A stretch of DNA of 35,246 nt from a virus. A program made the position numbers and the translations under genes. The notes beneath the pieces are model-generated. The model was given only the letters and a program-made list of their open reading frames with translations, did not search any database and had not been told where the DNA came from. Within the stretch, counting starts at the first letter, position 1. Every line of letters starts with the position of its first letter. The DNA lies in IMG/VR virus record IMGVR_UViG_3300028883_000095, positions 1-35,246 of that record; one strand, 5' to 3'. Shown here piece by piece: positions 1,021-31,000 of the stretch.

Positions 1021-1055
1021 TACAATTGCGAGCATATGCGCAAAGAGGGAAAACA

Positions 1056-2606
1056 ATGAAAGAATTATTTCGAACAACACACTCGAATGCTCCAAAATTT
1101 ATACTGCCGGAAGCAAAGACACGTCCCGAAGATTATCCGCCCGAATATGTTGAGCAAATGGGGATCGATCTCGATGAGGCGATCGCTCGACAGGCGGCAA
1201 AACTCTCGGCGGAAACCCGGAAAAGCGTCAACCTGTTCGAGACAGGTCGATCAGTTGCAGGGTCCGGCGGTCAAAAATTCACTCAGCGAAGATTTAAAAA
1301 TCGCGTAAGTACATTGAAAAATCTCTCCGAATCGGCGATCCCTTCCCGTGCGATCAGTATTGTCCGGGGCGGCATCGGGAATCTTGAATACATTATCCGC
1401 CCGAAAAACAGCAACCTCAAACCGACAGAGGTCGCGGCATACGAAAAGAGCATTCAAACGGTGAGGAAAGTCATCGACACTCCGAATGCGACCGACGACA
1501 ATCTCTCCGCATTCCTCGGACAGATCGTCGAGGACATTCTCGTTTTTGATGCAGGGTGTTTTGAGTATGTCCCGAAACCGAAATTTTCAAACGGGATTTT
1601 GTCTCTTGAAGTCGTTCCCGGATATTCAATCGCACAGTCGGGGGTTTGGCAGGGAGACCCGAAAGCGATCCGTTGGGCGCAGGTTGTCGAGGGAGTGCCG
1701 AGAGTGCATTTCCGGGATGAACAACTCGAATATATCATGATGAGAAAAAGGTCGTGGACTCCGCACGGATTCTCGAAACTCGAAACGGCAATGGAAATCC
1801 TCGACGCGTTTTTCAGTGTGTCATCGTTTCAGAGGGCGACCGCGTCCGAGGCGTTCCCGCCGTTTCTGGTTTGGTTGGGGGACAACGTCGGCGATGCCGA
1901 GATGAGACAAATGCGCTCGTTTTGGGACATGGAATTAAAAGGACGAGGCACGCCTGCGTTTTGGGCGAACACCGGGAAACCGGAAGTGATCAGTTTGAAA
2001 CCTCACACTGACGACGGTTTGTTCCTGAAATACACAGAATTGTTGATCCGGGTCATTGCGTTTGTTTTTGATTTGAAACCGCAGGATTTCGGCATCGAGA
2101 GGGATGTCAACAGGTCAACCGCAGAGGTCGCGCAGTCCGCCTCGGTTGCCGAGGCTGTCAAACCTCTCGCTCAAATGATCGCGGCGAAATGCAACACTCG
2201 CGTCCTGCCGAAAATTGCCGAGATTACAGGCGACGAAAAAATTCTCGAACTTGAGTTTTTTTGGTCGAACGTTGATCCCCGTGATTTGAAACAAGAGAGC
2301 GAGATCATCCGGGGGAACACGGAACACGACATCCTGAAAATGGACGAGGCTCGTGCGATGCTCGATCTCCCGCCTCTCCCGAACGGGATCGGACAACTGT
2401 CCCTGAGTGCTTATCGTGAGGTCGTCAAATTCAATCCCGAACTCGCTGTCGATGAGGTGACGAGAAAATTGCTGTTCGGCGAGGATCTGGAAAAGGACGA
2501 CGGAGTCGACCGGGATGAGGCGAATGTCGGAGAAACGGAATCCGAGACGGATGACAAAAAGGCGGTCGAAAATATTCTCAACGGGGGAGACCCCGCTGAC
2601 GGCTAA
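1056..2606 (+). CDS. Phage portal protein
   Basis: The 516-residue product is the expected size for a portal, the dodecameric ring at the capsid vertex through which DNA passes and onto which the tail is attached. The stretch around KPQDFGIERDVNRSTAEVAQ resembles the conserved portal segment in which a helix is followed by an N-R-S/A-T-A-E motif. The N-terminal half has an aromatic and proline-rich wing-like pattern, and the last about 50 residues are acidic. I chose ATG 1056 because AGAGGG lies 6 nt upstream; an in-frame TTG at 1026 lacks such a site. The MuF head protein follows, as is usual. No terminase is in the window, so it probably lies to the left. The portal call rests on motif, length and context. 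Confidence 0.8.
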   Translation: MKELFRTTHSNAPKFILPEAKTRPEDYPPEYVEQMGIDLDEAIARQAAKLSAETRKSVNLFETGRSVAGSGGQKFTQRRFKNRVSTLKNLSESAIPSRAISIVRGGIGNLEYIIRPKNSNLKPTEVAAYEKSIQTVRKVIDTPNATDDNLSAFLGQIVEDILVFDAGCFEYVPKPKFSNGILSLEVVPGYSIAQSGVWQGDPKAIRWAQVVEGVPRVHFRDEQLEYIMMRKRSWTPHGFSKLETAMEILDAFFSVSSFQRATASEAFPPFLVWLGDNVGDAEMRQMRSFWDMELKGRGTPAFWANTGKPEVISLKPHTDDGLFLKYTELLIRVIAFVFDLKPQDFGIERDVNRSTAEVAQSASVAEAVKPLAQMIAAKCNTRVLPKIAEITGDEKILELEFFWSNVDPRDLKQESEIIRGNTEHDILKMDEARAMLDLPPLPNGIGQLSLSAYREVVKFNPELAVDEVTRKLLFGEDLEKDDGVDRDEANVGETESETDDKKAVENILNGGDPADG

Positions 2607-2715: not shown

Positions 2716-5700
2716 ATGCGCAAACTGAGAATAAAAGCACAGGGATTCCCGAAACTCTCCGTTGCTGAAAAGCGTCGTCGAGAGAGAGCATACGACGAGA
2801 TATGGTCGGAGATCGAAACCGAGATCGAAAAGTTTCACGACCTGATCGCGAAAGAGGCTCTCGCCGAACTGCGCGAACTCGAAAAACTCTTTCCTATGTT
2901 GCGCCGTCTCGCGCCTGAAATCTCCGCGTCATCGACAGATCAATCCCTCGCAAGGCTCAACGCCGCCGCGACGGGGCAAGCGTATCAGGACGCGCTGAAC
3001 ATGAACCTGTCGACGATTCAATTGAAACGCGGCGACACATTTGAGACGAGGGTGTCCGGCACTCTCGGCAAGGCGAGCGAAAAATTCAGTGCGACAGCGA
3101 CGACTCGCCTCGGATACAAATCCGTCGGGTATCCCCGCGCGATGAACTCATGGTTGAACAACCGTGTCCCGGAGATCGTCGAAAAGATCAGCAACGATCG
3201 CAAAAAATCAATATTTCAAACGGTCGCTCGCGGTGCGCGGAGAGGTGAAACGATCAACGAGATCGAGAATCGCGTCCGTTCAAAATATGACACTTTCGCC
3301 CGATCAACATCCGCCGGGATCGCCCGGACAGAGATCGGATTTATTCACGCTCGGTCGGAGTGGATCTCAATCAAGGCTCTCGGAATTGACCCGAAAACTC
3401 TCGACAAAATCTGGTTGTCTTCCCGCGACATGAGGGTCCGCGGATTGCGTAAAGGGGACAAGGCGCATCACAACACAATGGACGGACAGCGTCGGAGATT
3501 CGATCAACGATTTTCGAACGGATTGATGTATCCGAGAGAGGCGGGACAGTCGGCGAGAGAGGTGATCAACTGTCGGTGTGTCCTGTTGTTCGAACGTGTC
3601 GGCAAAATGCGCAGGGTTGACCCCGGCAAGTTCAACACGCGAACGACCGTCCCGTTCAATCAGTTCGGGGACAAGTGGATCGACAACGGACTCCCGTCAT
3701 CGATAATTTTGCCGGAAGAATTGATCGAGGCTCTCGATCCGTTGATCCGGGACGATGTTCTCGACGCGGCGAGGGTGTTATTCGACAAAGGGAAACTCGC
3801 CGAGCCTGAGTTGTCCTCGTTGTTTCAAGAGATCGCGAAACTCGAAAACGGAGAGATTCATCATTTCGCGACTCGTCTCAAATCCCGGAAAAGCATCATT
3901 TCAAAACTCGGTCGAATTATGGACGAAAAAGGAATGAACTTGTCGCAGGCGATCGACGACATTCGGGATATTAATCGATACACAATGGTTTTCAAACACG
4001 AGTCGTTCACAAAGAACGCAACCTCGGCAATCAAAAAATTCGACGAGAAAGGTTGGAAACTGTTCAAGGCGAACAACTCATTCGACGATGATATGTATCA
4101 CGGTTACAACACATGGTTCGTCAAAGACGGTCAATACATCGAGGTTCAATTCCATACTCCGACGAGTATCAAAATCAAAGATCCCTCGCACAAATTATTT
4201 TCAAAGTCGCGGGAGTTGGCAAAGGGATCGGCGGAGCGCAAGGCACTCGAAGATCAGATCCGGGATCTGTGGAAAAAGGACGTACTCCCGGACAACTGGC
4301 AGGCATTGCCGAAACCGGGACAGGTGATCGACGACGTTGTGAAAAAGGTTGATGATGTGGTCACAAAGATCGATGATGTCGTTGTGAAAAACGATGTGTT
4401 GTTACCGAAAACCGCGGATCAATGGACTGATGACGCTGTTGCGAATTATCAAAAAGAGGTTCGGAAGTTACGCGAAACAAATCTCGCGAGGCAGAAAGTG
4501 TTTGATCTGGATACAGGTGAACCTCTTAAAAACTACACGGATGTCGGGAAAGGGAATAAAAAATATTTAAAGATCAGCAAGTCTCCCGACGGTACTCCGT
4601 TTAATTCGCAGGATTGGAAAGCATTCACACAGTACGACAATTTCAAAGAGATGAGGGTGATCACGTCAGAGGGAGAATACATTGTCACGAAACCCCCGTC
4701 AGGTTTCGCATTCTCGGCGAACGACATCGAGCGAATGTATCTCGATTTAGTTGATGAGGTTTTCTTTGAGTGGAAAGACATTGAGACAACGACAAAAATG
4801 ATAATGGACGAGGTCAACAAGAGGCTGGCGGCAAAGGTTGGAACTCAGTTCACGTTTGAGGTCAAACCCGCGGCGTTCCGGGTGTACGATTTACTCGACA
4901 ATATTGACGATTTGAAAATGGTCAAAATGCCGACGGGTGTCCTCGATGCGAAACAAGCAAAATTGATGGAAGGGTACGCGGACGATATTTCCAAAAAACT
5001 TTTGGAAGTCGACGACCTGAAACCTGTCATCGGACAATTTGATGATCCGGCGGATTATCAGGCGGCTCTCGCGGAGTGGACGCAATACAAACAGGAACTC
5101 AAAAGCACGTTCCGCGCAATCAAGGACGGACAATCGGTCGGAGAGGGTGCGTCAATTGTTGTCAATGCCGAGAACAAGGCGGTCGGTGCGTTGTCATATA
5201 CAGAGGCGCAAGCGGGGGAAAGTCTGTACGTAACAAACATCGGCGGCACACAAAACGGGTTGATGAAACACTTAGTCCGAGAGGCTGTCGAGGAATCATT
5301 CGAACAGAGCGCAAAAGGTGCGGTCAGGATGTATCCGCACATGATGGGATACGACGACATTGATGATCTGTTGCGCTCGCTTGGGTTCACCGAGACGGGC
5401 GGTCAATGGTCGTTGACATCGGTGAACGCTGAAAAACTCCGAAAGACTATTCAAAAGATCGGTCGTTTGAATATGTCAACACTGTATGAAGACGTTCTCT
5501 CTGCACTCGATGACGGGGTTCATTACATCGGGAAACGGGCGTTGCACAGTGCCGACGACAAGGAAATGCTCGAAGCGATCAACACAACATTGACGCGAAA
5601 AATAGATGACGGGTACGAACAATTGCGCCTGTTAGATGAGGGATCGGACGCATACAAGGCGGTCGAAGCTGACCTCAACGCGTGGCTCAAAATGAAACAA

Positions 5701-6774
5701 GCCGTCGGAGATGTGAGCGGCATCAATTCCGACTCCCTCGCGTTCATGATGAGCAACGGAAACGTGACGGGCGCGGTGCAATATGGGGATGTTCTCGGAC
5801 ACGTCAACCGAATGAGAATTAATCGACTGATCAAGGTCAGCGATGCCGGGGAAGACGTTTTCGAGGCATTGTTGCACAGGGTGATTGACACCTCGATCGC
5901 GACAAATCAACAGGGGACATTGCTTGTCAATTTCGCGTTCGACAACACTATCAAAGACGCGAAATCTGTTGTCGGCAAATTCTATAAAAAAGTTGGGTTC
6001 AAAAGGATAACGTCGGGACCGTATAAAGACAATATGTATCTGAAATCATACAAGGGTCTCAAATACAACGGGGTCGAGGTTGACACGTTTGTCCCGGCGA
6101 AGACGCTCGACGAGGCTCACGATTTCGCGAGGTTGCATTTCGGGACCGAAAAGTTTGAGACATCAATCAACCTCGATGCGTGGAACGTCGTGAACGAGGA
6201 ATTATTTAAACAAAAAAAGTCGTGGGACTTCACATTGCGGACAATCGGAGATGCGGACCCGACAGCGTACGCAAGCGCAAATCAGGTATCAATGAATTTC
6301 AACCCGATGTTTTTCAACAACCCCGAATTTATGCTCGAAAAATTGAAAAACAATGTATACACAGGTTTTCATCCGATCGGCGGGGATACAATGCAGGCAG
6401 TCGTTCAGCATGAACTCGGACACGTCCTCTCGCTCGACGAGTTGTATTACGGATCATCCCGTTTCAAAAAAATAATTAAGGATATGTATTCCGAATACCG
6501 TCTTGAATTTAATCGGATAATGGTGAAATCGTCGCAGAGGACGGGATCGATGTCGATCAAAACGAACATGACGCACACGTACTCGTTGCAAAATGCGGAC
6601 GAATTGACGGACGAATTGCGTGAAATGCTTGTATCGACGTATGCTCTCAAAGAACCCGCCGAGTTCATCGCCGAGGCGTTCTCAATGGCACTCAGTGCCG
6701 AAAACCCGACACCGTACGCGCAAAAGGTGTATGACTTGATGATCAAGTATTTGCAGAACACGCCGAGGCATTGA
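2716..6774 (+). CDS. Giant MuF-type minor head protein with RelA/SpoT-like, GNAT-like and zincin domains
   Basis: This 1352-residue protein starts with a phage Mu gpF / SPP1 gp7-type minor head domain (about residues 1-300). It ends in the family's hallmark cysteine motif NCRC (C286, C288), preceded by the basic GQRRRFDQRFSNG region. Residues about 384-525 look like a RelA/SpoT nucleotidyltransferase: RLKSRKSIISKL, DIRDINRYT (D418, R421), YHGYN (461-465) and EVQFHT (476-481). A linker of three 7-residue DDVVxKx repeats follows. Residues about 790-905 and 1005-1100 each resemble GNAT acetyltransferase cores (AVGALSY at 822-828; FYKKVGF at 1089-1095). The C-terminus is a zinc metalloprotease: HELGH at 1232-1236 and a downstream EFIAE at 1316-1320. 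MuF proteins are carried inside the capsid and are known to be fused to polymorphic toxin domains. The start ATG has only a weak ribosome site. Confidence is high for MuF and zincin, good for RelA/SpoT-like, moderate for GNAT. Confidence 0.85.
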   Translation: MRKLRIKAQGFPKLSVAEKRRRERAYDEIWSEIETEIEKFHDLIAKEALAELRELEKLFPMLRRLAPEISASSTDQSLARLNAAATGQAYQDALNMNLSTIQLKRGDTFETRVSGTLGKASEKFSATATTRLGYKSVGYPRAMNSWLNNRVPEIVEKISNDRKKSIFQTVARGARRGETINEIENRVRSKYDTFARSTSAGIARTEIGFIHARSEWISIKALGIDPKTLDKIWLSSRDMRVRGLRKGDKAHHNTMDGQRRRFDQRFSNGLMYPREAGQSAREVINCRCVLLFERVGKMRRVDPGKFNTRTTVPFNQFGDKWIDNGLPSSIILPEELIEALDPLIRDDVLDAARVLFDKGKLAEPELSSLFQEIAKLENGEIHHFATRLKSRKSIISKLGRIMDEKGMNLSQAIDDIRDINRYTMVFKHESFTKNATSAIKKFDEKGWKLFKANNSFDDDMYHGYNTWFVKDGQYIEVQFHTPTSIKIKDPSHKLFSKSRELAKGSAERKALEDQIRDLWKKDVLPDNWQALPKPGQVIDDVVKKVDDVVTKIDDVVVKNDVLLPKTADQWTDDAVANYQKEVRKLRETNLARQKVFDLDTGEPLKNYTDVGKGNKKYLKISKSPDGTPFNSQDWKAFTQYDNFKEMRVITSEGEYIVTKPPSGFAFSANDIERMYLDLVDEVFFEWKDIETTTKMIMDEVNKRLAAKVGTQFTFEVKPAAFRVYDLLDNIDDLKMVKMPTGVLDAKQAKLMEGYADDISKKLLEVDDLKPVIGQFDDPADYQAALAEWTQYKQELKSTFRAIKDGQSVGEGASIVVNAENKAVGALSYTEAQAGESLYVTNIGGTQNGLMKHLVREAVEESFEQSAKGAVRMYPHMMGYDDIDDLLRSLGFTETGGQWSLTSVNAEKLRKTIQKIGRLNMSTLYEDVLSALDDGVHYIGKRALHSADDKEMLEAINTTLTRKIDDGYEQLRLLDEGSDAYKAVEADLNAWLKMKQAVGDVSGINSDSLAFMMSNGNVTGAVQYGDVLGHVNRMRINRLIKVSDAGEDVFEALLHRVIDTSIATNQQGTLLVNFAFDNTIKDAKSVVGKFYKKVGFKRITSGPYKDNMYLKSYKGLKYNGVEVDTFVPAKTLDEAHDFARLHFGTEKFETSINLDAWNVVNEELFKQKKSWDFTLRTIGDADPTAYASANQVSMNFNPMFFNNPEFMLEKLKNNVYTGFHPIGGDTMQAVVQHELGHVLSLDELYYGSSRFKKIIKDMYSEYRLEFNRIMVKSSQRTGSMSIKTNMTHTYSLQNADELTDELREMLVSTYALKEPAEFIAEAFSMALSAENPTPYAQKVYDLMIKYLQNTPRH

Positions 6775-6813: not shown

Positions 6814-7026
6814 ATGCAACCGATAAATGAGCCGCAGTGTTTTGACTGCAAGTTTTTTCACAATGATCTCTCGTTGAGTCATGACCCGATGAACGGGTTT
6901 TCGTGTGACGCATTCCCTGCCGGGATTCCTGACGAGATAATCAACGGGAGTCACGATCACAAAAAGCCGTTCCCGAATGATCAGGGGATTCGATTCGAAA
7001 AAGCCGACGAGGTGTCGATCAAATGA
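6814..7026 (+). CDS. Small cysteine-motif protein, MuF-neighbour family
   Basis: This 70-residue protein contains CFDCKFF (about residues 9-15), a later C-D-A-F-P-A-G-I-P motif, and a D-Q-G-I-R-F-E segment. That pattern recurs in small phage proteins found next to portal and minor head genes. Three cysteines and several histidines suggest metal binding. AAAGAGGTGAC gives a strong Shine-Dalgarno before the ATG. Its stop overlaps the next start as ATGA. Function is unknown. The family resemblance is from memory and the metal site is inferred. Confidence 0.7.
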   Translation: MQPINEPQCFDCKFFHNDLSLSHDPMNGFSCDAFPAGIPDEIINGSHDHKKPFPNDQGIRFEKADEVSIK

Positions 7027-7370
7027 TCAAAGGGAAGAAACAAACAAAAATCGTCACTCGATTTTTTGTCAAGGATGTCCCGCTCCGCATTGTTCGGCGA
7101 TATGAGAACGGCGACGATGTGCGGACGGAACGATTCAACGAAAGAGGGTACGAGTGGGTCGACGCGGGCGGTTTGTATTTGAGTATTGTCGGCATGGGGG
7201 GCGATTGCGATTTCGCTGAGTTGACTCTCAAAGAGGCTCGCGAGATCATTGGGGTGATTATCCCGGAGCATTTCACGAGAGCCGACAAATATTTGTTCAA
7301 GGATCTCCCCGATCCTGAGAAAGCGAAAAAGGTCGTCCCGAAAAACAACAGCGAGAAAAAATTGAGGTGA
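7023..7370 (+). CDS. Hypothetical protein, 115 residues
   Basis: This soluble protein begins in the ATGA overlap with the preceding gene. It shows a mixed alpha/beta pattern, with a beta-rich first half (IVTRFFVKDVPLRIVRR) and a lysine-rich C-terminus. No motifs, membrane segments or signal peptide are seen. Its stop TGA (7368-7370) lies within the ribosome-binding site of the following glycosyltransferase, so the two are probably translationally coupled. I do not recognise it. Confidence 0.65.
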   Translation: MIKGKKQTKIVTRFFVKDVPLRIVRRYENGDDVRTERFNERGYEWVDAGGLYLSIVGMGGDCDFAELTLKEAREIIGVIIPEHFTRADKYLFKDLPDPEKAKKVVPKNNSEKKLR

Positions 7371-8837: not shown

Positions 8838-8914
8838 GCGAAGAAAAAACGGGGCGTGGTTTTCGAACTATGTCACAGTCTTGTGTTTAGATTGTGAGCA
8901 ATTTGAGGGAAGAT

Positions 8915-9283
8915 ATGAAAAATTTTGTATCAGTGACGGCAAGAGGTGAATTAATTTTACAAGACGAACCCGCGTCCGAACTTCTTATCACGGATGACGG
9001 TGAGATTTTGTCGGACAAACTGAAAGCAGGCGAACGACTCGGCACAATGCTCGAACGTAAGCGCAACGAACTCGGAATGTCAATCGAGGATCTGGTTAAA
9101 GAATTACCGATCCGGGAAAGCGCATACAAGGGGATCGAGGACGGATACAATGTCGCTCCCCCTGATGACGTAATCGAGGCAATTGCCGAGGCTTTGAAAC
9201 TTGATCCTGACGAATTGAAAAAACTCGCATCGCTCGACAAGTCTGATCCTGTGACATATTATCCCGAACCTGCCGGATATTAA
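8915..9283 (+). CDS. Cro/C1-type helix-turn-helix protein
   Basis: This 122-residue protein has an unknown N-terminal segment (about 50 residues, VTARGELILQDEP...) and then an XRE/lambda-repressor-like HTH domain from about residue 53 to 110. The features are the ERLGTMLERKRNELGMS helix start, the turn SIEDLVKELPI, the recognition region ESAYKGIEDG, and a closing helix ALKLDPDELKKLA. I chose ATG 8915 because GAGGGA lies about 6 nt upstream; GTG 8894 lacks that. The gene sits 3 bp before the protease gene, so it is co-expressed with head genes, which is unusual for a repressor. It could autoregulate the capsid operon or be a virion-associated DNA-binding protein. Confidence 0.75.
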   Translation: MKNFVSVTARGELILQDEPASELLITDDGEILSDKLKAGERLGTMLERKRNELGMSIEDLVKELPIRESAYKGIEDGYNVAPPDDVIEAIAEALKLDPDELKKLASLDKSDPVTYYPEPAGY

Positions 9284-12513: not shown

Positions 12514-13218
12514 ATGATCGGCGCGATCGTGTCGTATCACAATCAATCAGATACAATTGACGGGTGCATCAAATCGATCGAAAAACAATGCGAAACACTC
12601 GACTGTCGGGTGATCGTGTATGTCATCGACGACGCGTCCGCGCCGAAACTCTCTCTGTCAAAATCCCTGTACTCGCTCCCGGTTGCGTGCGTGCGAGCCT
12701 CTCACAACGTGGGGGTTCAGCGGGTGCGCAATTTTGGTTTTCATTTGATGAAAAAACACTCGCCGGAATACGTGATTTTTGTTGATGGTGATGTTGAATT
12801 CGCCGACGGTGCATTCTCGAAAATGAAAGCCGCGATCGAGACAGGCGGGGACGGTGTCGCGTACGCGTACGGACATTTTTCCCGGAGAGGTGCATTGACC
12901 GGGAGACAGGTTTCCGCGCCGTTCTCTGCGGAACGGTTGCGCCGATACAATTACATTTCCACGATGAGCCTGATCAAATACAACATACTGGCGAAAACTT
13001 ATCCGCGACCGTTTGTTGAGGACGAGGATCGTTTTCAGGATTGGAGTCTCTGGTTGCGCCTCTTGAACCGAGGATATACCGGGGCATTCGTGAACTCGGT
13101 TTTGTTCTCCGCGTACTTTTCGGGGGACGGGATCTCGACAAACAGCGTCGTGGATTATCAGGAATGGCGGCGAATTGTTCATGAGCGATACAACCAAACT
13201 CAAAAAGGTGTTTGTTAA
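12514..13218 (+). CDS. Family 2 glycosyltransferase
   Basis: This 234-residue GT-A glycosyltransferase starts with the family 2 strand IGAIVSYHNQSDTIDGCIKSI, followed by VIDDAS. The metal-binding DGD motif is at residues 91-93 in FVDGDVEF. The acceptor-side acidic motif VEDEDRFQDWSLWLRL is at about 168-183. It would transfer a sugar from a nucleotide donor with inversion. The gene lies 4 bp after the helix-hairpin-helix gene and overlaps the next gene. No membrane segments are present, so it is a soluble enzyme. The acceptor is unknown; virion protein decoration is inferred from location. Confidence 0.85.
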   Translation: MIGAIVSYHNQSDTIDGCIKSIEKQCETLDCRVIVYVIDDASAPKLSLSKSLYSLPVACVRASHNVGVQRVRNFGFHLMKKHSPEYVIFVDGDVEFADGAFSKMKAAIETGGDGVAYAYGHFSRRGALTGRQVSAPFSAERLRRYNYISTMSLIKYNILAKTYPRPFVEDEDRFQDWSLWLRLLNRGYTGAFVNSVLFSAYFSGDGISTNSVVDYQEWRRIVHERYNQTQKGVC

Positions 13219-14902
13219 TGCGTCCGGGGAACTTGTCGCCGGGGGTCCGGTTCGCAAGGTGTACTCGACGGACTGCGGGAATTATATCAACTGCACTCCC
13301 CGCGAAATCAAAATCCTCGAACGCAACAACCTGATCTGTCAACCTGCGACCCGCCGATTTGTTGACATTATTCTCATCAAGTACGGGCAACCCGAACTTG
13401 AAAAACAATGTATTGACTCGATCCGCAAACACACGGATCTCAACAAACACGTCCTCACCGATGTCGACAACAAAAAGATCGACAAAAATCTCGGTGCGAT
13501 CTGGAACGATTTGATCGAGGCGAGTGAGGCTCCGTTCGTCCTGTTGCTGAACACGGACACAATCATCACCGGGGACGGTTGGCTCGACGAGTTGCTCGAT
13601 GTTGCGTGCATCACACGCGCCGACGCTGTCGGACCGATGACGGACAAATGCGGAATCAATTATCAAGTCTGTGAGAAACCTGCTTTCCGACAACTGCGTT
13701 CGTTTCGAGAGGTGTCGCAACTCTCCGGGTTTTGTGTGTTGTTGAAAAAAGAATCTTGGGAGAGTGCCGGAAAGTTCCCGGAATTTTTCCCGTTTTACGG
13801 ACAAGAGTCCGACCTGATGGACCGACTTGATAAAAAAATACTATGCAAAAATGTTTTCGTCCATCACCTCGCCGGGGGAACAATCAAACACACTCCGGGG
13901 AGAGATCAGGGAAAAGAGAAAAAGTTGTCTCTCGACGTGTACAAAAAGGTCAAGGCGTTCGACTTCAAATCGCAACGTTTGCTCGTCCTCGGATCGGGAC
14001 AGGGAAACAAGTTTCCTCTCTGGCGGGGACTCGATCAAGGTTGTTCCGAGATCGTTCGCCGGGGCGGGAGAGCGAGACATATTTGTCTCGATGATCTGCA
14101 CAATCAAGAGATGAGGGAAAAGGTCGAGGCATTCAGTCCGACCGCGGCTCTCGTGGTTTGCACGAACCCGACGAGGCTGATTGAAAGCGCGGACAGTATT
14201 CGCTCCCTGCGGTGTCCTGTCGGGCTGTGGCACAACGATCTCCGACCTGTGCATACAGAGTATCGCGCATTGAGAAAGTGCTTTGAGAGGCTGTTTTTAT
14301 GCTGGCAATCGTCCCGCGGAGAATATGATCTCGATCAGTGGGAGAGGGAGATCGGCGCACCGACTCAATATATGCCGCAAGGGTCGGTCATCAACCCGTA
14401 TTTGAGACAACCGAAAATCTCCCGGCGGGGAATTTTTATCGGGAATACAGATTGCGGGAAGTATCACACAGGGCGCAAAAAACTGTTCAAAGACTTGGGG
14501 ATTGATGTCATCAATGAACCGGGGAAAAAACGATTGATGATCGAGCAACAATCTCCCGTCCTGTACAGGTCGGCGAAATTCTCGTTCGCGATGTCCCCTG
14601 ATGTTCCGGGATACAACTCCCTGCGGATGTATAACGTCCTCGCATACGGGGGATGCTTATTCGTCAAGAGATTCGACGGTGTCGAGAAACTGGTCGCCGA
14701 CGGAGAGGACGCAATTGTTTTCGACAGCGCAGAGGATGCCCGGAAAAAAATGAACATTCTCGACAATGACCTGTTCACGAGAGAACGAGTCGCCCGGAGC
14801 GGCTGGCGATTACAACAAGCAAAACATACGGGGCTGTGGCGGATGCTCAATATGACGCATTCGTTGAATACAGGTGATTATTCTTTTTGGGGTGAATTAT
14901 GA
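13181..14902 (+). CDS. Two-domain glycosyltransferase: family 2 plus CgeB-like GT-B
   Basis: This 573-residue protein appears to be two enzymes in one. Residues about 55-265 are a GT2-like domain with the metal-binding motif NTDT (124-127) in LLLNTDTII and a GQESDLMDRL segment. Residues about 275-560 are a GT-B-like domain with LLVLGSGQGN at the start. Near its end it has YNSLRMYNVLAYGGCLF and the RFDGVEKLVADGEDAIVF segment, which is typical of the CgeB-like glycosyltransferase family. The first about 50 residues are extra. I chose ATG 13181, inside the end of the previous gene; the upstream TTG 13175 is less likely. It overlaps the methyltransferase start as ATGA. Two activities suggest it builds a disaccharide or a short chain. 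Confidence 0.8.
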   Translation: MSDTTKLKKVFVNASGELVAGGPVRKVYSTDCGNYINCTPREIKILERNNLICQPATRRFVDIILIKYGQPELEKQCIDSIRKHTDLNKHVLTDVDNKKIDKNLGAIWNDLIEASEAPFVLLLNTDTIITGDGWLDELLDVACITRADAVGPMTDKCGINYQVCEKPAFRQLRSFREVSQLSGFCVLLKKESWESAGKFPEFFPFYGQESDLMDRLDKKILCKNVFVHHLAGGTIKHTPGRDQGKEKKLSLDVYKKVKAFDFKSQRLLVLGSGQGNKFPLWRGLDQGCSEIVRRGGRARHICLDDLHNQEMREKVEAFSPTAALVVCTNPTRLIESADSIRSLRCPVGLWHNDLRPVHTEYRALRKCFERLFLCWQSSRGEYDLDQWEREIGAPTQYMPQGSVINPYLRQPKISRRGIFIGNTDCGKYHTGRKKLFKDLGIDVINEPGKKRLMIEQQSPVLYRSAKFSFAMSPDVPGYNSLRMYNVLAYGGCLFVKRFDGVEKLVADGEDAIVFDSAEDARKKMNILDNDLFTRERVARSGWRLQQAKHTGLWRMLNMTHSLNTGDYSFWGEL

Positions 14903-15435
14903 TCAAAATCAATTTGGGGTGTGGACGAAAACGGTTTCACAAACAAGGATACATCAATATTGATGTATCTCCCGGATGTGAGCCGGACGTTTTGCTCGAC
15001 GTTGAACATGACCCTCTCCCGTATGCGGACAACACCGCGACGGAGATTGTCGCGGACAACCTGTTCGAGCATTTCGAGGATCTCGTGTTTGTCTTGAACG
15101 AATGTCATAGGGTTCTCATGATGGGCGGCAGATTATGGTTTCGTGTACCTGCGGCGGATCGGTTTGAGTATGCGACAGAACACGCGCCGCACGGTGTCGA
15201 CAAGCGAAACGAGGCAATCAAAATTGTGATGTGGGGAGCGTTCCGAGATCCGACACACAAAAAGTTTTTCTGTGAGGGGACGTTCGACTATTGGAACGCA
15301 GAACATCCGACGTTCAAAAATTACGGCGGACCCTCTTATAATTTCAAACCGTGGACGGTTGATCTGAAAGTCACACACAACCCGTCGAACGGTTTGTTTT
15401 TTTACGATGCGATGCAGTTCCCGGTGAAGGTGTAA
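14899..15435 (+). CDS. SAM-dependent methyltransferase, class I
   Basis: This 178-residue protein shows the class I methyltransferase signature: motif I INLGCGRKRF (near residue 5), the acidic residue after the second strand in YINIDVSPG, and DPLPYADNTATEIVADNLFEHF. It also has HRVLMMGGRLWFRVP, the usual Methyltransf_11 pattern. The start overlaps the preceding stop as ATGA, so it is coupled to the bifunctional glycosyltransferase. A role methylating the sugar or its attachment site is suggested by context. DNA methylation is unlikely, since no target recognition domain is present. Confidence 0.85.
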   Translation: MIKINLGCGRKRFHKQGYINIDVSPGCEPDVLLDVEHDPLPYADNTATEIVADNLFEHFEDLVFVLNECHRVLMMGGRLWFRVPAADRFEYATEHAPHGVDKRNEAIKIVMWGAFRDPTHKKFFCEGTFDYWNAEHPTFKNYGGPSYNFKPWTVDLKVTHNPSNGLFFYDAMQFPVKV

Positions 15436-15473
15436 ACCCCTGTTTAACGCGTCGAGGATCGCTCTCACGCGAC
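15434..15473 (+). repeat. Repeated stem-loop element, copy B
   Basis: This 40-bp element between the methyltransferase and the next glycosyltransferase matches copy C (20371-20410) over almost its full length, including AAACCCCTGTTTAA and CGAGGATCGCTC. It can fold as CGCGT...ACGCG with an inner GAG/CTC pair around GATCG. TTTT follows, so it might act as a weak terminator here. Confidence 0.7.
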
Positions 15474-15494
15474 TTTTGAAAAAGGTGAATACAA

Positions 15495-16322
15495 ATGAGT
15501 CAAGGCAAAATGTTCGGAATCATACTCCCGCATATGCGGGCATTCGGCGGAGTCCGTCGGTTTCTGGAAATCGGGACACATCTCACACAACGCGGGCATC
15601 AAGTGATTTATTTTGTCGGCGAAAAATCTGATCTCTCATGGTTTGGGGACAAGGTTCGACCCCGTGTTCGTTCGTGGAATGAAACCCCGTACAATGTTGA
15701 CATCATGTTGATCGGCGATCCGACTCCGCAGTGCGTGAGCAAATTGACTCACGTCGAGGCTCACACTCAGGTTTTCCTGTGGGTCATCGCGGGGGGAGAA
15801 TATCTCAATATGTACCGGAGCATTTACAACATGGAAAGCGAGAGACTGCATTTCGTGGTCAACAATCGCGTGTTCCTGAAATATTTCCCGAAAGCGCATA
15901 TGTGCGAGGGGGGAGTGAACACGCGACTGTTCCGCCGGGGGCGGAAATTAAAGGTCGGATATTACGCCGGGAGAGGTAAGTCAAAGGGCGAGCCGGACAT
16001 TGTATCCGCACTCTCGGATTTGAAAAGCATCGATTTAATCCCGATACAGGGAAAGACGAGTCACGAACTGGTCAAGGTTTATCAAAATCTCGATTATTTT
16101 GTCTCGTGGGAAACTCGTGAGGGTTGGTCAAACACATCCGCCGAGGCTCTCGCCTGCGGTGTTCCCGTGGTATCAAACGGAGTCAACGTCGAGCCGTTCG
16201 AAAATAGGGTCATCGTTGTCGGCGATCTCCGTGCATTCTTTCAAGACCCGATGCGTGATTTTTCATGGGGAGAAACGACAGACAAATTGATTCATATTTT
16301 TGAATTGACGGGGGCGTTGTGA
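15495..16322 (+). CDS. GT-B glycosyltransferase, group 1 (family 4-like)
   Basis: This 275-residue protein is shorter than typical GT4 enzymes (about 350-400) but has both halves. The N-terminal acceptor-domain start is GIILPHMRAFGGVRRFLEIG, the family's G-G-x-x-R pattern. The C-terminal donor-domain signature is EGWSNTSAEALACGVPVVS, with E residues of the ExnE motif (about residues 205-225). AAAGGTG lies 8 nt before the ATG. It overlaps the next glycosyltransferase by one base (TGATG). It is preceded by the repeated stem-loop element. Likely a retaining soluble enzyme. Confidence 0.85.
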   Translation: MSQGKMFGIILPHMRAFGGVRRFLEIGTHLTQRGHQVIYFVGEKSDLSWFGDKVRPRVRSWNETPYNVDIMLIGDPTPQCVSKLTHVEAHTQVFLWVIAGGEYLNMYRSIYNMESERLHFVVNNRVFLKYFPKAHMCEGGVNTRLFRRGRKLKVGYYAGRGKSKGEPDIVSALSDLKSIDLIPIQGKTSHELVKVYQNLDYFVSWETREGWSNTSAEALACGVPVVSNGVNVEPFENRVIVVGDLRAFFQDPMRDFSWGETTDKLIHIFELTGAL

Positions 16323-17101
16323 TGTTTGAATTCGTCAACATAATCACAGAGGACGAGTCGAAAGCGTGGATTTTGCGAAGGTGTGCGCGGGAGATACAGA
16401 AAAAATATCCTGAGATTACGATCAACGGATCGCCGAGACCCTTGACGTATGTGATCAATTACGCGTTGCACAAAAACGCGTCGGGTGTCACTGTCGGGCA
16501 TTATACTCATCTCGAAGAATCGGGCGTGTTTCGGAAAAGGTTCATCGACACGATCCCGTTGTTTGATTATTATGTCGCGATGTGCAAAAAGACGGCGGGG
16601 CTGTTGCTCGAACACGGCGCAGATCCCCGGCGAGTTTCTGTCGTTCGACAAGGTTGTGACGAGAGGGTGAGAAAAGAACCTGTTTTCGGCATCGTCGGGC
16701 GCACGTATCCGAGCGGGCGAAAAGGTGAACACTTGGTCGAAAAAATGATCGCCTCGAATTACAAAATAAAAGCGTGGGGGCGAGGTTGGAATGTGGACGA
16801 CACAATAAGCGATTTTGATGCTTTACCGGATTTTTACCGGGGGATTGACTATCTCGTTGTCACAAGTCTCAACGAGGGCGGACCGATCCCGGTGATCGAT
16901 GCGATCGCCGCAGGTGTCCCGGTGATTGCGCCTGATGTCGGTTGGTGCTTTGAGTTTCCGGTGATCCGTTATGATGTCGGGGATTGGGAGTCATTGAACG
17001 GCGTGTTGATGAGATTGACGAATCCGCCGACGTGGGATTCGTGGGCGAAAGCGCACGGGAAAATTTTTCACGCAATAGGGCGAAAAGAGGGTTTGATATA
17101 A
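16322..17101 (+). CDS. GT-B glycosyltransferase, compact
   Basis: This 259-residue protein resembles a compact group 1 glycosyltransferase. The donor-domain half has VFGIVGRTYPSGRKGEHLV, IKAWGRGW, and the signature SLNEGGPIPVIDAIAAGVPVIAPDVGW (about residues 178-204), including the E and the AAGVPVIA segment. The N-terminal half is reduced (HYTHLEES). I chose ATG 16322, since the ORF's GTG at 16319 directly precedes it. It overlaps the following connector gene as TAATG, so this sugar-modification block is co-translated with virion assembly genes. Confidence 0.8.
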   Translation: MFEFVNIITEDESKAWILRRCAREIQKKYPEITINGSPRPLTYVINYALHKNASGVTVGHYTHLEESGVFRKRFIDTIPLFDYYVAMCKKTAGLLLEHGADPRRVSVVRQGCDERVRKEPVFGIVGRTYPSGRKGEHLVEKMIASNYKIKAWGRGWNVDDTISDFDALPDFYRGIDYLVVTSLNEGGPIPVIDAIAAGVPVIAPDVGWCFEFPVIRYDVGDWESLNGVLMRLTNPPTWDSWAKAHGKIFHAIGRKEGLI

Positions 17102-26000: not shown

Positions 26001-26801
26001 ACAGGGGTCAATATTGAGGCTCTCAAAGAGAACGCACTGACGGCGAAAAATATGTTTGATGCGTCGGAACAGTTCGCCTCGTTCGTTGGGGCGTTGAATC
26101 AACAGTTGCCGCAACTTGATCTCGGTCTCGAAGAATTCCTCGCGACAGGCGTGATGACCGACACACTGAAAAAATACATCACCGATCTCGGCGGAGATCC
26201 TGCGTTGTGGGCGGCATATTCGGGACTGTTCGACAAGGTCGCTGAAAATCAGGGATTCGTCGACGCGGCGGCAAACGGCGGAGTCATGGCGGGGGTCGAT
26301 TATGACAACCTCGCGTTGACTGTCGCGGACCTGATCGCAACAGACCCGGAAGCGCAACAAATCGTCGCTGATTTGATGACGGACGCGGCGAACCTGTCGG
26401 TCACTGCCGAGGAAAGAATGCAAGAGGCGGTCGACTCATTTAAAGAGGCTGTCGAAACATTTGCAGATGCAATTTATCGGAAAGAAAATCCGCGTGCGCC
26501 GTATTATGAGGCGGTGAACACAGGTCCGACACGTACTCGCCCGGAAACAACGGGGAGTACAGGGACGAGTTCAACATCGGACGGTCCGTCGATTCCTCGC
26601 CCGACAAGAGGGGGAGATGTCAGCGTCAACGTCACGATCGACTCTCCGATCACTGTCGAGGGCGCGGGTGATCTCACCGAGGAAAACATCGAGAGGTTGG
26701 CGCGAGGATTCCGCAAGGTTCTCGATGTCAACGCCGGGGGAATTGCTGACAAGGTTGCGACAACGGTCGAGACAACACTGCGCGGAAGGGGTTCAATATA
26801 A
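23055..26801 (+). CDS. Tape measure protein
   Basis: This 1248-residue protein is the largest tail gene. It has the tape measure hallmarks: alanine and glycine-rich helices, a TP901-1-type N-terminal domain (ADFESQFTKIKTLVLGV, then QLAVATGVGPKELADAMFVV and GNLEASDLAGSLGRVGAIA), and a long hydrophobic block at about residues 440-520. A long charged helical region follows, and then a Ser/Gly-rich stretch near 800. By the usual length rule (about 0.15 nm per residue) the tail would be near 190 nm. The start is GTG 23055 with only a weak ribosome site. The stop overlaps the next gene. Confidence 0.9.
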   Translation: MPNVIYTIKADSTSGKQALGDFGAAQDKVAAGANKIEGALVKTRNAAQQFGAKLKGVQFPKKLYTEFQRLQAVIHANNKAIGEFGAKMKSAGGSIRGFGAEVSALSVAVGAVGVGTVYAAADFESQFTKIKTLVLGVNADTRDLEESVKQLAVATGVGPKELADAMFVVTSAGARGADVMDILTRSAKASALGLGETETIARAVTGAMQAFSAQGLTAGDAMDTLVATVREGNLEASDLAGSLGRVGAIASQAGLSFQDVGGFIASFTRAGVSAEESVTALRGVVGGLLKPAEQAQEAFAAFGTTAGAVRDTIKKEGLAAAMNGLIESTGGNSEAMAQLIPNIRALAGVLSTAGAQGESFAAIEDNIKHSTGILNEGFDLLQKDASFAFKQIVSELKVAAIEFGANFLPIVKDSVLPALKSFVEWLSKIAKVFGDSPPFVQKLVLALMGLTVAIGPLLLITGSLVSAVGTLTTAYAAATAGGGLFATSLTAISAAALPVAAVIGTALAAVAIGRLIGSLEVSGRSIDQWIQKWRGLPDVVANEASMVSTTEKLAKVLKEDFNVVIEKGSMSVEEWSNKVGQAYLAAKKQKEETEELAKVTKENTAAEEIATAQKAALAKETEWLTGAIEAAESQFEKLGGKVPEYTHELEDYQAVVHAIAKEELPDLDASFDRSIDAWQKAQDEVDKLNKEMDDFAEKVDIIADDKIPNFVTSVGKIPEKFKESFTDVKKTTEGFAADFTNSVSTVVTNFSQAVGDMIWEWEGFGDALKDISKEFISSLVSMFVESLFKPVMEGINGLLSGSSSGGSGGILGSLFGGFKNLGLEGQIGLGAAGAMLGFMTWLNSKPIEPNGKMPMGSGYTQQIEGTDVMFDYGYAGASGLIGNQVYSNVPDQTISPQELESMGLSPSDVGMVGFDSWADFYDSQEQATAANIAGKNATETLTSALEKITYTVDDFGEALKTSLDLAIATGKVSTQLEKALTGTGVNIEALKENALTAKNMFDASEQFASFVGALNQQLPQLDLGLEEFLATGVMTDTLKKYITDLGGDPALWAAYSGLFDKVAENQGFVDAAANGGVMAGVDYDNLALTVADLIATDPEAQQIVADLMTDAANLSVTAEERMQEAVDSFKEAVETFADAIYRKENPRAPYYEAVNTGPTRTRPETTGSTGTSSTSDGPSIPRPTRGGDVSVNVTIDSPITVEGAGDLTEENIERLARGFRKVLDVNAGGIADKVATTVETTLRGRGSI

Positions 26802-27553
26802 TGGGATTTCCTGCTTATCTCTCCGAGGATTTGCTCGCGGGCATTGATTTCGACACGGATGTTTCATCGAGTTCCGAGGATTCGGACTATCCTCTCGAAA
26901 ATCTCGCTGACAGGAATCCGGCGAACGTGTTCAAATTCGAGAGTGCCACGAACGGATACATCGAATTTGATTTCGGATCAACACAGTCAATCAACACGAT
27001 CGCATTGTTGAATCATTCGTTTGATTCCGGGGACAACATCACAGTCAAGGCGGGAGCCTCTCCCGACCCGTCGACAGTGATCGCGACTTTTATATACAGG
27101 GCGCGGGACATGGTCGCTTTTTTGTCGACTGCGGAGTCCGCGAGGTATCTGCGGCTTGTATGGTCGGGAGCAACAGCGGCTCACTCGATCGGGGAAATGG
27201 TTGTCGGAGAAAGCGTCACATTGTCATCTCAATTTTCGCAGAGAATCGGGTCACAGACTGTTGAGAAAAAGATTCGCCGGGAAACTCCGAGAGGGGTCAA
27301 ATCCTCTTTCGATTTGTATTGTCTCGAACAGAGGGAATATTTGTTCCGGGAATTGTCAACGACAGAAAAAAATGCGTTTCGAACAATGCACGAGTCTCTC
27401 GGCGGGGACAGGTATCCGATGCTCTGGTTGCCGAATGTTTCAACGTCAGAGGTTTTGTACGGATACAAACAGGAAAATTTCGAGGCGCGAAGTGTGAACC
27501 ATCACCGTTGGGAGTATATTTTATCGATCACCTCGGCGAGCCGGGGCGAATGA
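26801..27553 (+). CDS. Distal tail-type protein with discoidin-like domain
   Basis: This 250-residue protein follows the tape measure gene, the position of a distal tail protein that caps the tube and starts the baseplate. Residues about 15-140 resemble an F5/8 type C (discoidin) beta-sandwich: GYIEFDFGSTQSINTIAL, VKAGASPDPS, ARYLRLVWSG and SIGEMVVG. Such folds often bind glycans. The second half (about 145-250) has a beta-rich distal tail pattern. The whole protein is homologous to the C-terminal 255 residues of the giant protein at 28042. Start ATG 26801 overlaps the tape measure stop. Confidence 0.75.
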   Translation: MGFPAYLSEDLLAGIDFDTDVSSSSEDSDYPLENLADRNPANVFKFESATNGYIEFDFGSTQSINTIALLNHSFDSGDNITVKAGASPDPSTVIATFIYRARDMVAFLSTAESARYLRLVWSGATAAHSIGEMVVGESVTLSSQFSQRIGSQTVEKKIRRETPRGVKSSFDLYCLEQREYLFRELSTTEKNAFRTMHESLGGDRYPMLWLPNVSTSEVLYGYKQENFEARSVNHHRWEYILSITSASRGE

Positions 27554-28041: not shown

Positions 28042-31000
28042 ATGAGCAAAAAAACACGAGATCAAAAGAGAAAAGACCCGGACGCAACAATCCGCGCACG
28101 AGTGCCGATTCCCGGCAAACGTTCGCAGGAATACGTTCAGCACAAGGACGGTCGAATTGAGCGACGGTGTTATGCTCCGCACAACCCTCACTATTATCAA
28201 GACGAAACGGGGGAAATGCGTCCGATCGAGGTGTCTTTCAAAAAGGCGGGCAAGGACAGCAAGGGCAAAAATATAACACTGTTCGACAAAAATGTCGCGT
28301 CCGTTGGTCTGAAAAAGGGAAAGAAAAAATATCTCGGAATCCGCCCGGATTTCAATCAAAAACTGAACAAGGAATCCCTCGAATTTGATCTCGAATCCGT
28401 GCAGTTTGACGGGGTTGATGTTGATCTCGATTCCGAGGATCTCTCGTTCATAATGACGAGACAGCGGTGTCGGCAACTTGTCCCGGTCACACGTCCGATC
28501 TCATCGTTTCGAATCGAGTTCAAGTTATACGCGAAGGGACTCCGCGTCGAACACAACAAGGAACTCGACGAATTCTGGTTTTATTCAGTCGACGACGGTG
28601 CGTTCAGGTTCAGGATTCGAAAACCTGTTTTGACTGACGGGTCCGGCTCACTGCACGATTTCGGCACAGGGAGCGATCACTCACATCTCACGAGTCACTC
28701 ACTACAGGACAACGGCGACGGCTCGTTCACATACATCAAAGAAAGCACGCCGGGATTCGCAAACGCAACACTCCCGGAAAGTGATCTCTGGATTGATGCT
28801 GACACATATTACTCAAACTCGTCCGACGGCTCAATAAGTCTCAACCGTGCAGGGTTTAGTTGGTCAACTACACGCAGTCACACAGGGACATATGCGTCAG
28901 TGGACGATACAGACCCGGACGAGGCGACGGCAATGATGGGGGGGTATAGTACCTCATCATTGCGATATTACATCTCGCGTTCGTTCATGCTGTTTGACAC
29001 ATCCGGCGCGAGCAGTCCCGCGTCCGTTTCCCTCTTTGTCAGAGGTTACAATTACGCGGAAAAAGACGCGACCGTACAGCAGGGAACACAGGGGACATCA
29101 TTATCAAATTCGGATTACAACAATTTTTCCGGGTCCGCGTGGGACTCCGTGTCATGGTCGACGGGATGGAATGAGTTTGTATTCAATGGGACAGGCATCG
29201 CCGCAGTCAACACGAGCGGCGACACAAAAGTTTGTCTCCGACAAAAAGATAATGATTATGACAACGTCGCGCCGAGTACAGCGTCGACGAACTACAACAG
29301 AAACGGCGTTTATTATGCCGAATCATCGAGTGACCCGTATCTGTCAATCACAGAGTCCGCCTCTGCGCCGACAGTTACAACGTCCGCCTGTTCCGCAACA
29401 ACAGCGTCTCAAACTACCGGAAACGGGAACATCACCGCAACAGGCGGAGAGAATGCGACCGAACGCGGATTCTGTTATATGCAAGGAACATCGGGAGACC
29501 CGACAACTGCGAATGATACAGTTGCGGACACCGGGGGATCATACGGTACAGGGTCATTTTCAAAAGACATCACGGGACTGTCGTCCGGGACATCGTACAG
29601 GGTGCGCGCGTATGCCATAAACGGCGGCGGCACAGGGTACGGAACAACAGTCACCGTCCTCACGAAACCCGCCGCTCCGACAGGGGTCTCAGCGACCGAC
29701 GGAACTCACGCCGACAAGGTTGTCGTTTCGTGGACGAAATCAACAGGCGCAACAGGTTATAAAGTATACGAAGGCGCGAATTTGCTCGACACGGTCGGAG
29801 ATGTTGCATCGTATGATGACACCGCCGCCGCCGCACCGACTATCACGCCGGGGACGACTGTCGCGACCGACGGAACGCAAACCGCTCACGTTGCGCTCTC
29901 ACTCTCCGGGGCATCGACAAACAACGGAGCATCAAGGACGTACAAGGTTGTCGCGGTGAATGCAACGGGTGATAGTGCGGAGAGTTCGACAGATACAGGA
30001 TACAGGGGACCGGGAACTCTCACGTATCAATGGCAGAGATCCGCCGCCGATTCCGATGCGTCATATGGGAACATCTCCGGGGCAACATCCTCAACTCATA
30101 ATGACACCGCCGCGCCTGCGGGCGTAATCACTCCGGGGACTGCCGCCGCGACTGACGGCGCACACACGGACAAAGTCGCATTGAGTTTATCTGGTCAATC
30201 CGTCGCCGACGGAGCGGGGAGATATTACAAATGCGTTTTGAACGCGACAGGTTGCACGGAGCAAACGTCAACAGCGAATCGAGGATACAGGGGAACAGGG
30301 TCTCTCACTTATCAATGGCAGAGATCCGCCGCCGACAGTGACGCGTCATATTCAAACATTGCAGGCGGAACGACTGCGTCGTATGATGACACGGGCGCAC
30401 CTGCCGGGGTCATCACTCCGGGGGCGGCTGTTGCAACTGACGGAGATCATTCCGACAAGGTCGCTCTCTCACTCTCCGGGACATCCGTCGCCGACGGAGC
30501 GGGGAGATATTACAAATGCGTTTTGAGTGCAACAGGTTGTTCAGATCAAACATCGTCAGTTGATCGAGGATACAGGGGAACAGGGTCTCTCACTTATCAA
30601 TGGCAGAGGTCCGCCGCCGACAGTGACGCATCATACAGCAACCTCGCCGGGGCGACAACAGCGTCTCACGATGACACCGACGCTCCCGAACCTGTGATCA
30701 CTCCCGGATCTGCGGGCGCAACTGACGGAGATCATTTGACAAAAGTTGCGCTCTCGTTGTCGGGGACATCGATCGCCGACGGTGTGGGGAGATATTATAA
30801 ATGCGTTTTGAATGCGACAGGGTGCGCAGAGCAAACCGCAACCGCAAATCGAGGATATACAGGCGCGGCATCTCTCACGTATCAATGGCAAAGATCCGCG
30901 GCAGACAGCGACGCATCATACAGCAACCTCGCCGGGGCGACCGGATCAACATTCGACGACACGACGATCCCGGATCACGAGGGGAGATATTACAAATGCG

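What the first reader, a model, noticed from the sequence alone, without database searches (positions are those of the whole stretch)
2716..6774. MuF head protein carrying four or more effector-like domains in one chain
The sequence shows a MuF domain with NCRC, followed by a RelA/SpoT-like domain, two GNAT-like units and a HELGH zincin. MuF proteins fused to a single toxin domain are an established polymorphic toxin family of temperate phages. Several different enzyme-like domains on one capsid-internal protein would be an unusual injected effector polyprotein. The C-terminal zincin could cleave the chain and release the other domains. Delivery and cleavage are inference.
Basis: partly seen in the sequence, partly recalled or inferred. 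Interest (0 to 1): 0.85.

Follow-up and report, generated by a model that had tools for sequence, protein, structure and literature searches.

The report
Two-warhead phage head toxin with immunities
A phage protein thought to be packed in the virus head carries at least two toxin-like enzymes in one chain, and the two small genes after it look like the matching antidotes; it is a new arrangement of a known kind of phage toxin.

Summary

ORF 2716-6774 (1352 aa, directly after the portal gene) has a MuF head domain, a RelA/SpoT-type synthetase with the full signature of the (p)ppApp-making Apk2 toxins, and a C-terminal HELGH zincin. The two "GNAT" units have no sequence match and lack the acetyl-CoA loop. 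One is weakly GNAT-like in fold; the other is untested.

New here:
(1) Gene 7023-7370 is an IapK-type immunity gene (profile E=3e-7; next window ORF 1.8).
(2) In a sister phage (L097) the MuF-RelA protein stops after RelA and this immunity gene follows at once. The window's C-terminal ~814 aa plus gene 6814-7026 therefore lie between toxin and immunity gene.
(3) Gene 6814-7026 belongs to a small Cys/His family found at the 3' end of MuF-zincin genes (13/34) and at no MuF gene without zincin (0/84; p=1e-8). It is a candidate zincin inhibitor.

The layout reads toxin1-toxin2-immunity2-immunity1. The same zincin sits on 36 short MuF proteins with no cargo, so it is more likely a warhead than a scissors. 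Multi-domain MuF and polyvalent proteins are published. This is a new variant of a known kind. Delivery and activity are inferred.

The parts
1026..2606 (+). portal protein gene, directly upstream of the MuF gene
   Evidence: PHROG 2662 portal E=3e-19; 67% identical syntenic gene in sister L097
2716..6774 (+). MuF polymorphic-toxin-type protein, 1352 aa, whole ORF
3211..3585 (+). MuF (Phage_Mu_F / SPP1 gp7-like) head domain, residues 166-290, NCRC at 3568-3579
   Evidence: PF04233 33 bits over cut-off
3727..4320 (+). RelA/SpoT-type adenosine 3'-pyrophosphokinase (Apk2tox-like) domain, residues 338-535; RYT 3976-3984, GYN 4102-4110, FH 4150-4155
   Evidence: 8vx3 E=6e-10, Apk2 phages, motif alignment, signature from PMC12226406
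4324..4389 (+). repeated linker DDVVKKV-DDVVTKI-DDVVVKN, where similarity to the sister phage ends
4399..4902 (+). region X, residues 562-729, no match to anything
5488..6081 (+). unit G2, residues 925-1122, possibly GNAT fold (FYKKVGF), no acetyl-CoA loop
6082..6774 (+). C-terminal zincin-like metallopeptidase, residues 1123-1352; HELGH 6409-6423, EFIAEAF 6661-6681
6814..7026 (+). 70-aa Cys/His protein of a family found next to MuF-zincin genes; candidate zincin inhibitor/immunity protein
7023..7370 (+). IapK-type immunity gene (115 aa), overlapping the preceding stop (ATGA)
   Evidence: HMM E=3.1e-7, shuffles, sister gene directly after MuF-RelA, alignment

Best explanation
A MuF polymorphic toxin of a tailed phage with two stacked warheads and two antidotes. 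The MuF domain places the protein in the head beside the portal (inferred from MuF biology). On infection it would enter the cell with the DNA (inferred). The RelA-type domain would make (p)ppApp (perhaps also (p)ppGpp) from ATP and drain the nucleotide pool (predicted from the Apk signature). The C-terminal zincin would cleave a target protein (inferred; target unknown). During phage production, IapK (7023-7370) blocks the synthetase's acceptor site, and the small Cys/His protein (6814-7026) would restrain the zincin. The layout arose when a block (X, G1, G2, zincin, zincin partner) came to lie between the RelA toxin and its immunity gene. The sister phage still has them abutting. Shown here: the domains, the immunity-gene homology, the sister arrangement and the zincin-partner association. 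Not shown: packaging, ejection, any activity, any inhibition.
For: RelA domain: homology to solved alarmone synthetase 8vx3 and Apk2 toxins. Syn residues RYT, GxN and aromatic-H are kept, the published (p)ppApp signature. The domain is as conserved with sister L097 (58%) as the MuF core (61%). Immunity: a profile built from the IapK genes of Apk2 phages and neighbours of RelA ORFs, with the window left out, hits 7023-7370 at E=3.1e-7 against 1.8 for the next window ORF; best of 5000 shuffles 0.009. The profile hits next to 67 of 84 RelA ORFs and in no locus without RelA. Sister L097: MuF-RelA ends at the equivalent of residue 538 and the IapK homologue (61% identity) starts right after the stop. 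Zincin: catalytic HExGH and the downstream Glu invariant across MuF-borne relatives; 37 MuF+zincin ORFs, 36 with the zincin C-terminal. Partner: 70-aa family at 13/34 deduplicated zincin ORFs against 0/84 MuF ORFs without zincin, p=1.3e-8, on either strand. Literature: 89% of MuF toxin genes but 25% of short MuF genes are followed by an ORF under 150 aa, and 20% of MuF toxins carry a metallopeptidase.
Against: No activity, packaging or inhibition is shown. The Aph1 hydrolase that accompanies Apk2 is absent from the window. In the sample, RelA inside longer chains never had an IapK neighbour (0/8 against 43/50), so the window is an exception. The phage fragment holds no recognised lysogeny gene, while MuF toxins are described from temperate phages. 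21 of 34 zincin ORFs lack the 70-aa partner. The small protein could be a structural or assembly factor.
Confidence: 0.6

Rival explanations
1. Injected polyprotein: the C-terminal zincin cuts the chain in the head or in the new host and frees the other domains (first reader; also proposed in general for polyvalent proteins).
For: Zincin plus several domains in one chain; P1 DdrB is cleaved before packaging and carries a C-terminal MPTase (PMC5512222).
Against: The same zincin family ends 36 short MuF proteins with no other cargo and has an adjacent small-gene partner like a toxin. No cleavage site can be recognised from one sequence.
Confidence: 0.22
2. Early takeover or anti-defence device of a lytic phage: the same injected domains act for the phage (alarmone signalling, proteolysis of a defence protein) rather than as a toxin against competitors.
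For: Polyvalent proteins are read this way. No lysogeny gene in the fragment; many glycosyltransferases, no integrase. Long RelA polyvalent proteins usually lack IapK.
Against: Retention of an IapK gene, 61% identical in the sister, points to a synthetase dangerous to the producing cell.
Confidence: 0.25
3. Contig chimera: two different MuF genes joined by misassembly.
For: Similarity to the sister ends abruptly at residue 538, and no relative has RelA and this zincin in one MuF chain.
Against: Both flanks belong to the same phage: portal upstream and IapK downstream are syntenic with L097. One open frame, overlapping stop/start of 6814-7026 and 7023-7370, similar GC3.
Confidence: 0.04
4. Merely structural: the C-terminal part is a passive extension of a head protein with dead enzyme folds.
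For: GNAT-like units lack the acetyl-CoA loop.
Against: RelA and zincin catalytic residues are intact; immunity gene kept.
Confidence: 0.08

Closest known systems
Apk2 MuF toxins of Streptococcus pneumoniae, Mannheimia haemolytica and Pasteurella multocida prophages, with IapK and Aph1 (PMC12226406)
   Same: MuF plus RelA-type domain with RYT/GxN/aromatic-H signature; IapK-type gene downstream; gene after the portal
   Different: RelA is internal, followed by ~814 aa with a zincin; a second small gene stands between toxin and IapK; no Aph1
MuF-zincin proteins, e.g. Flavobacterium phage lotta8-2 gp028 and L086, L087, L139, L140
   Same: Same C-terminal zincin and same small Cys/His neighbour gene
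   Different: No RelA, no G1/G2; about 550 aa
Polyvalent proteins (PMC5512222), e.g. P1 DdrB, N4 vRNAP
   Same: Several enzyme-like domains including MuF, RelA, GNAT and zincin types in one phage head protein
   Different: Here with paired immunity-type genes, which argue for toxin-immunity pairs
SaEAS (PDB 8vx3) exported alarmone synthetase of Streptomyces albidoflavus (PMC12691689)
   Same: Closest solved structure of the RelA domain, same FH at syn4
   Different: Secreted enzyme, no MuF
Sister phage L097 (IMGVR_UViG_3300028610_001866)
   Same: MuF-RelA 55% identical, IapK 61%, capsid 83%
   Different: Lacks X, G1, G2, zincin and the 70-aa gene

Membership tests
MuF polymorphic toxins | N-terminal MuF domain | tested here: met
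   PF04233 over cut-off
MuF polymorphic toxins | gene next to portal/packaging genes | tested here: met
   portal at 1026-2606
MuF polymorphic toxins | toxin domain C-terminal of MuF | tested here: met
   RelA-type and zincin domains
MuF polymorphic toxins | small immunity ORF downstream | tested here: met
   IapK-type 7023-7370, by homology only
MuF polymorphic toxins | carried by a temperate phage | tested here: inconclusive
   35 kb fragment without recognised lysogeny genes; incomplete
Apk2 ((p)ppApp synthetase MuF toxin) | syn2 RYT, syn3 GxN, syn4 YH | tested here: met
   RYT, GYN, FH (F for Y)
Apk2 ((p)ppApp synthetase MuF toxin) | IapK gene | tested here: met
   but one gene away
Apk2 ((p)ppApp synthetase MuF toxin) | Aph1 hydrolase gene | tested here: not met
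   no hit in the window
Apk2 ((p)ppApp synthetase MuF toxin) | synthetase is the C-terminal domain | tested here: not met
   814 residues follow
Apk2 ((p)ppApp synthetase MuF toxin) | makes (p)ppApp, toxic | not testable with these tools
   needs enzyme assay
Zincin-like metallopeptidase | HExxH plus downstream Glu | tested here: met
   invariant in alignment
GNAT acetyltransferase (G1, G2) | profile or sequence match to GNATs | tested here: not met
GNAT acetyltransferase (G1, G2) | R/Q-x-x-G-x-G/A acetyl-CoA loop after strand 4 | tested here: not met
GNAT acetyltransferase (G1, G2) | GNAT fold | tested here: inconclusive
   G2: pLDDT 46.6 model, GNAT-rich list but best E=0.086; G1: unusable model
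Polyvalent proteins | several different effector domains in one phage protein | tested here: met
   two secure, one tentative
Polyvalent proteins | carried in the virion and delivered | not testable with these tools
   needs proteomics

The most novel reading that the evidence does not exclude
The small Cys/His family represented by 6814-7026 is a previously unnamed immunity (inhibitor) family for the zincin warhead of MuF head proteins, and MuF toxins grow by nesting whole toxin-immunity modules (toxin1-toxin2-immunity2-immunity1), giving one head protein two independent warheads with two antidotes.
Probability: 0.35. Interest if true: 0.68.

Novelty: new variant of a known kind. Interest (0 to 1): 0.5.

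Why it matters
It links two open points about phage-borne MuF toxins: how they diversify, and whether the common MuF-linked zincin is a toxin or a processing enzyme. The window/sister pair shows a MuF toxin with and without the second module while the first toxin and its immunity gene stay in place. The zincin-partner family gives a direct co-expression test of the zincin as a toxin. If both antidotes work, one virion would carry two warheads, which would make resistance of a competitor to both harder (inference).

Tried and rejected
Full-length, zincin and G1/G2 single-sequence scans of viral contigs found no relatives; G1+G2 in genome contigs none; MuF-RelA alignment in genome contigs none. 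tblastn of the C-terminal 809 aa in phages: none. AlphaFold of G1+G2 together: pLDDT 38, and its fold search gave a meaningless mix. Viral structure library for G2: no significant match. The idea that 6814-7026 is the IapK was rejected: it is not similar to IapK and belongs with the zincin. Internal duplication of G1 and G2: no similarity. Aph1 anywhere in the window: none. A seven-row zincin alignment was too diverse to scan with. PF00583 in 50 related virus records gave only seven hits, too few for a GNAT profile. Rfam and tRNA scans of the window: nothing.

Full report
WHAT IS THERE. The window is a 35,246-base virus record. ORF 2716-6774 encodes 1352 aa and lies directly after a portal gene (1026-2606). 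Residues 166-290 are a MuF domain above the Pfam cut-off. Residues ~338-535 are a RelA/SpoT-type synthetase. Pfam misses it at its cut-off, but the link to solved synthetase 8vx3 (E=6e-10), to PHROG 7625 head proteins, to the RelA-like end of XopAD and to Apk2-type MuF toxins is clear. Residues 1123-1352 are a zincin with HELGH and EFIAEAF.

THE SYNTHETASE LOOKS ACTIVE. Aligned with the Apk2 domains of Mannheimia, Pasteurella and Streptococcus phages, the motif residues are kept. The residues published as separating (p)ppApp from (p)ppGpp synthetases (RYT, GxN, YH against AVR, SxH, IR; PMC12226406) read RYT, GYN, FH here. F for Y at the last site is also seen in 8vx3, the SaEAS enzyme that makes both products (PMC12691689), so the product is predicted as (p)ppApp, perhaps also (p)ppGpp.

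AN IMMUNITY GENE. Apk2 genes are followed by iapK and aph1. No aph1 hydrolase is in the window. A profile was built from the three IapKs and, iteratively, from small ORFs next to RelA ORFs in 80 IMG/VR loci, with the window and its nearest match L006 left out. It hits the ORF at 7023-7370 with E=3.1e-7; the next window ORF has E=1.8. The best of 5000 shuffles of the protein reaches 0.009. The profile finds a neighbour at 67 of 84 RelA ORFs and nothing in loci without RelA. Caution: most of those neighbours trained the profile. The pairwise evidence for the window gene is the L006 neighbour (E=1.3e-5) and the alignment.

THE SISTER PHAGE. L097 shares the capsid protein at 83% and gene order. 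Its MuF protein matches residues 2-538 at 55% and then ends. The IapK homologue (61%) starts right after the stop codon. So in the window the block from residue ~539 to 1352, plus gene 6814-7026, lies between toxin and immunity gene. Whether it was gained here or lost in L097 is not settled. The zincin-plus-small-gene pair in unrelated MuF proteins favours gain.

THE ZINCIN AND ITS NEIGHBOUR. Scans with zincin alignments gave MuF proteins that are just MuF plus zincin: 37 ORFs, 36 with the zincin at the C-terminus, median gap 85 aa. None of the 47 MuF+RelA ORFs held carries this zincin. Gene 6814-7026 belongs to a small family (CxxC ... C-x-AF ... IP ... H ... G). It lies at the 3' end of zincin genes in 25 of 60 zincin loci (in one, L044, just upstream of the zincin ORF), on the same or the opposite strand, and in 0 of 77 MuF loci lacking both zincin and RelA; after removing near-duplicates, 13/34 against 0/84, p=1.3e-8. 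Adjacency on either strand is unlike a fixed structural operon and like an antidote gene. This, and the lack of cargo in the short forms, makes the zincin a better warhead than processor. [quoted passage not shown]

THE GNAT CLAIM. G1 (730-903) and G2 (925-1122) match no family or PDB sequence, nor each other, and no homologue was found. The acetyl-CoA loop is missing in both. A single-sequence model of G2 is poor (pLDDT 46.6), yet about half of its top 50 PDB matches are named acetyl- or acyltransferases (best E=0.086). The worse model of G1+G2 gave no such enrichment. I take a GNAT-like fold for G2 as plausible, its activity as doubtful, and G1 as open.

CONTEXT. RelA inside longer chains is otherwise without IapK (0/8 against 43/50 for C-terminal RelA, p=3e-6; one of the eight, L050, is cut off right after the ORF). 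The window is the only internal RelA with an IapK. Other multi-enzyme MuF proteins exist: L028 is 2H phosphoesterase-MuF-RelA-DUF3626 and L133 is zincin-MuF-NUDIX-ADP-ribosyltransferase. Polyvalent proteins with MuF, RelA, GNAT and zincin domains, and zincin processing, were proposed in 2017 (PMC5512222).

VERDICT. A MuF toxin of the Apk2 type with a second, zincin-bearing module and two immunity-type genes nested behind it. The domains, the homologies and the sister comparison are shown. Packaging, injection, activity and inhibition are inferred.

Noticed in passing
window 6814-7026; L005, L086, L087, L091, L101, L107, L112, L115, L121, L122, L124-L127, L131, L134, L136-L140: Small Cys/His protein family at the 3' end of MuF-zincin genes, on either strand; unnamed in Pfam; candidate zincin inhibitor.
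   Followed up: partly
L028 5715-9626 (same contig as L147): MuF protein with 2H phosphoesterase, MuF, RelA-type and DUF3626 domains in one chain; the stretch between MuF and RelA looks GNAT-like by eye only.
   Followed up: partly
L133 5329-9522: 1398-aa protein with zincin, MuF, NUDIX and ADP-ribosyltransferase domains.
   Followed up: partly
L015/L016 8564-10282: IapK-like N-terminus fused to a 2H phosphoesterase (Acb1-like, just below that family's cut-off) and a GNAT, directly after a RelA ORF.
   Followed up: no
L011, L048, L049, L053, L056: Long proteins joining a RelA-type domain with HExxH and ParB-like regions, without IapK.
   Followed up: no
window 12514-17101: Run of glycosyltransferases and a methyltransferase inside the structural gene region between capsid and tail genes; similar run in L097 with extra genes.
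   Followed up: no
window 28042-32133: 1363-aa tail-like protein with many repeated fibronectin-like segments and a discoidin-like end resembling 26801-27553.
   Followed up: no
window 8894-9283: HTH (Cro/CI-type) protein encoded between the MuF region and the capsid genes, conserved in L097.
   Followed up: no
L097 3908-6603: Four genes with no Pfam match at the place after IapK, absent from the window.
   Followed up: no
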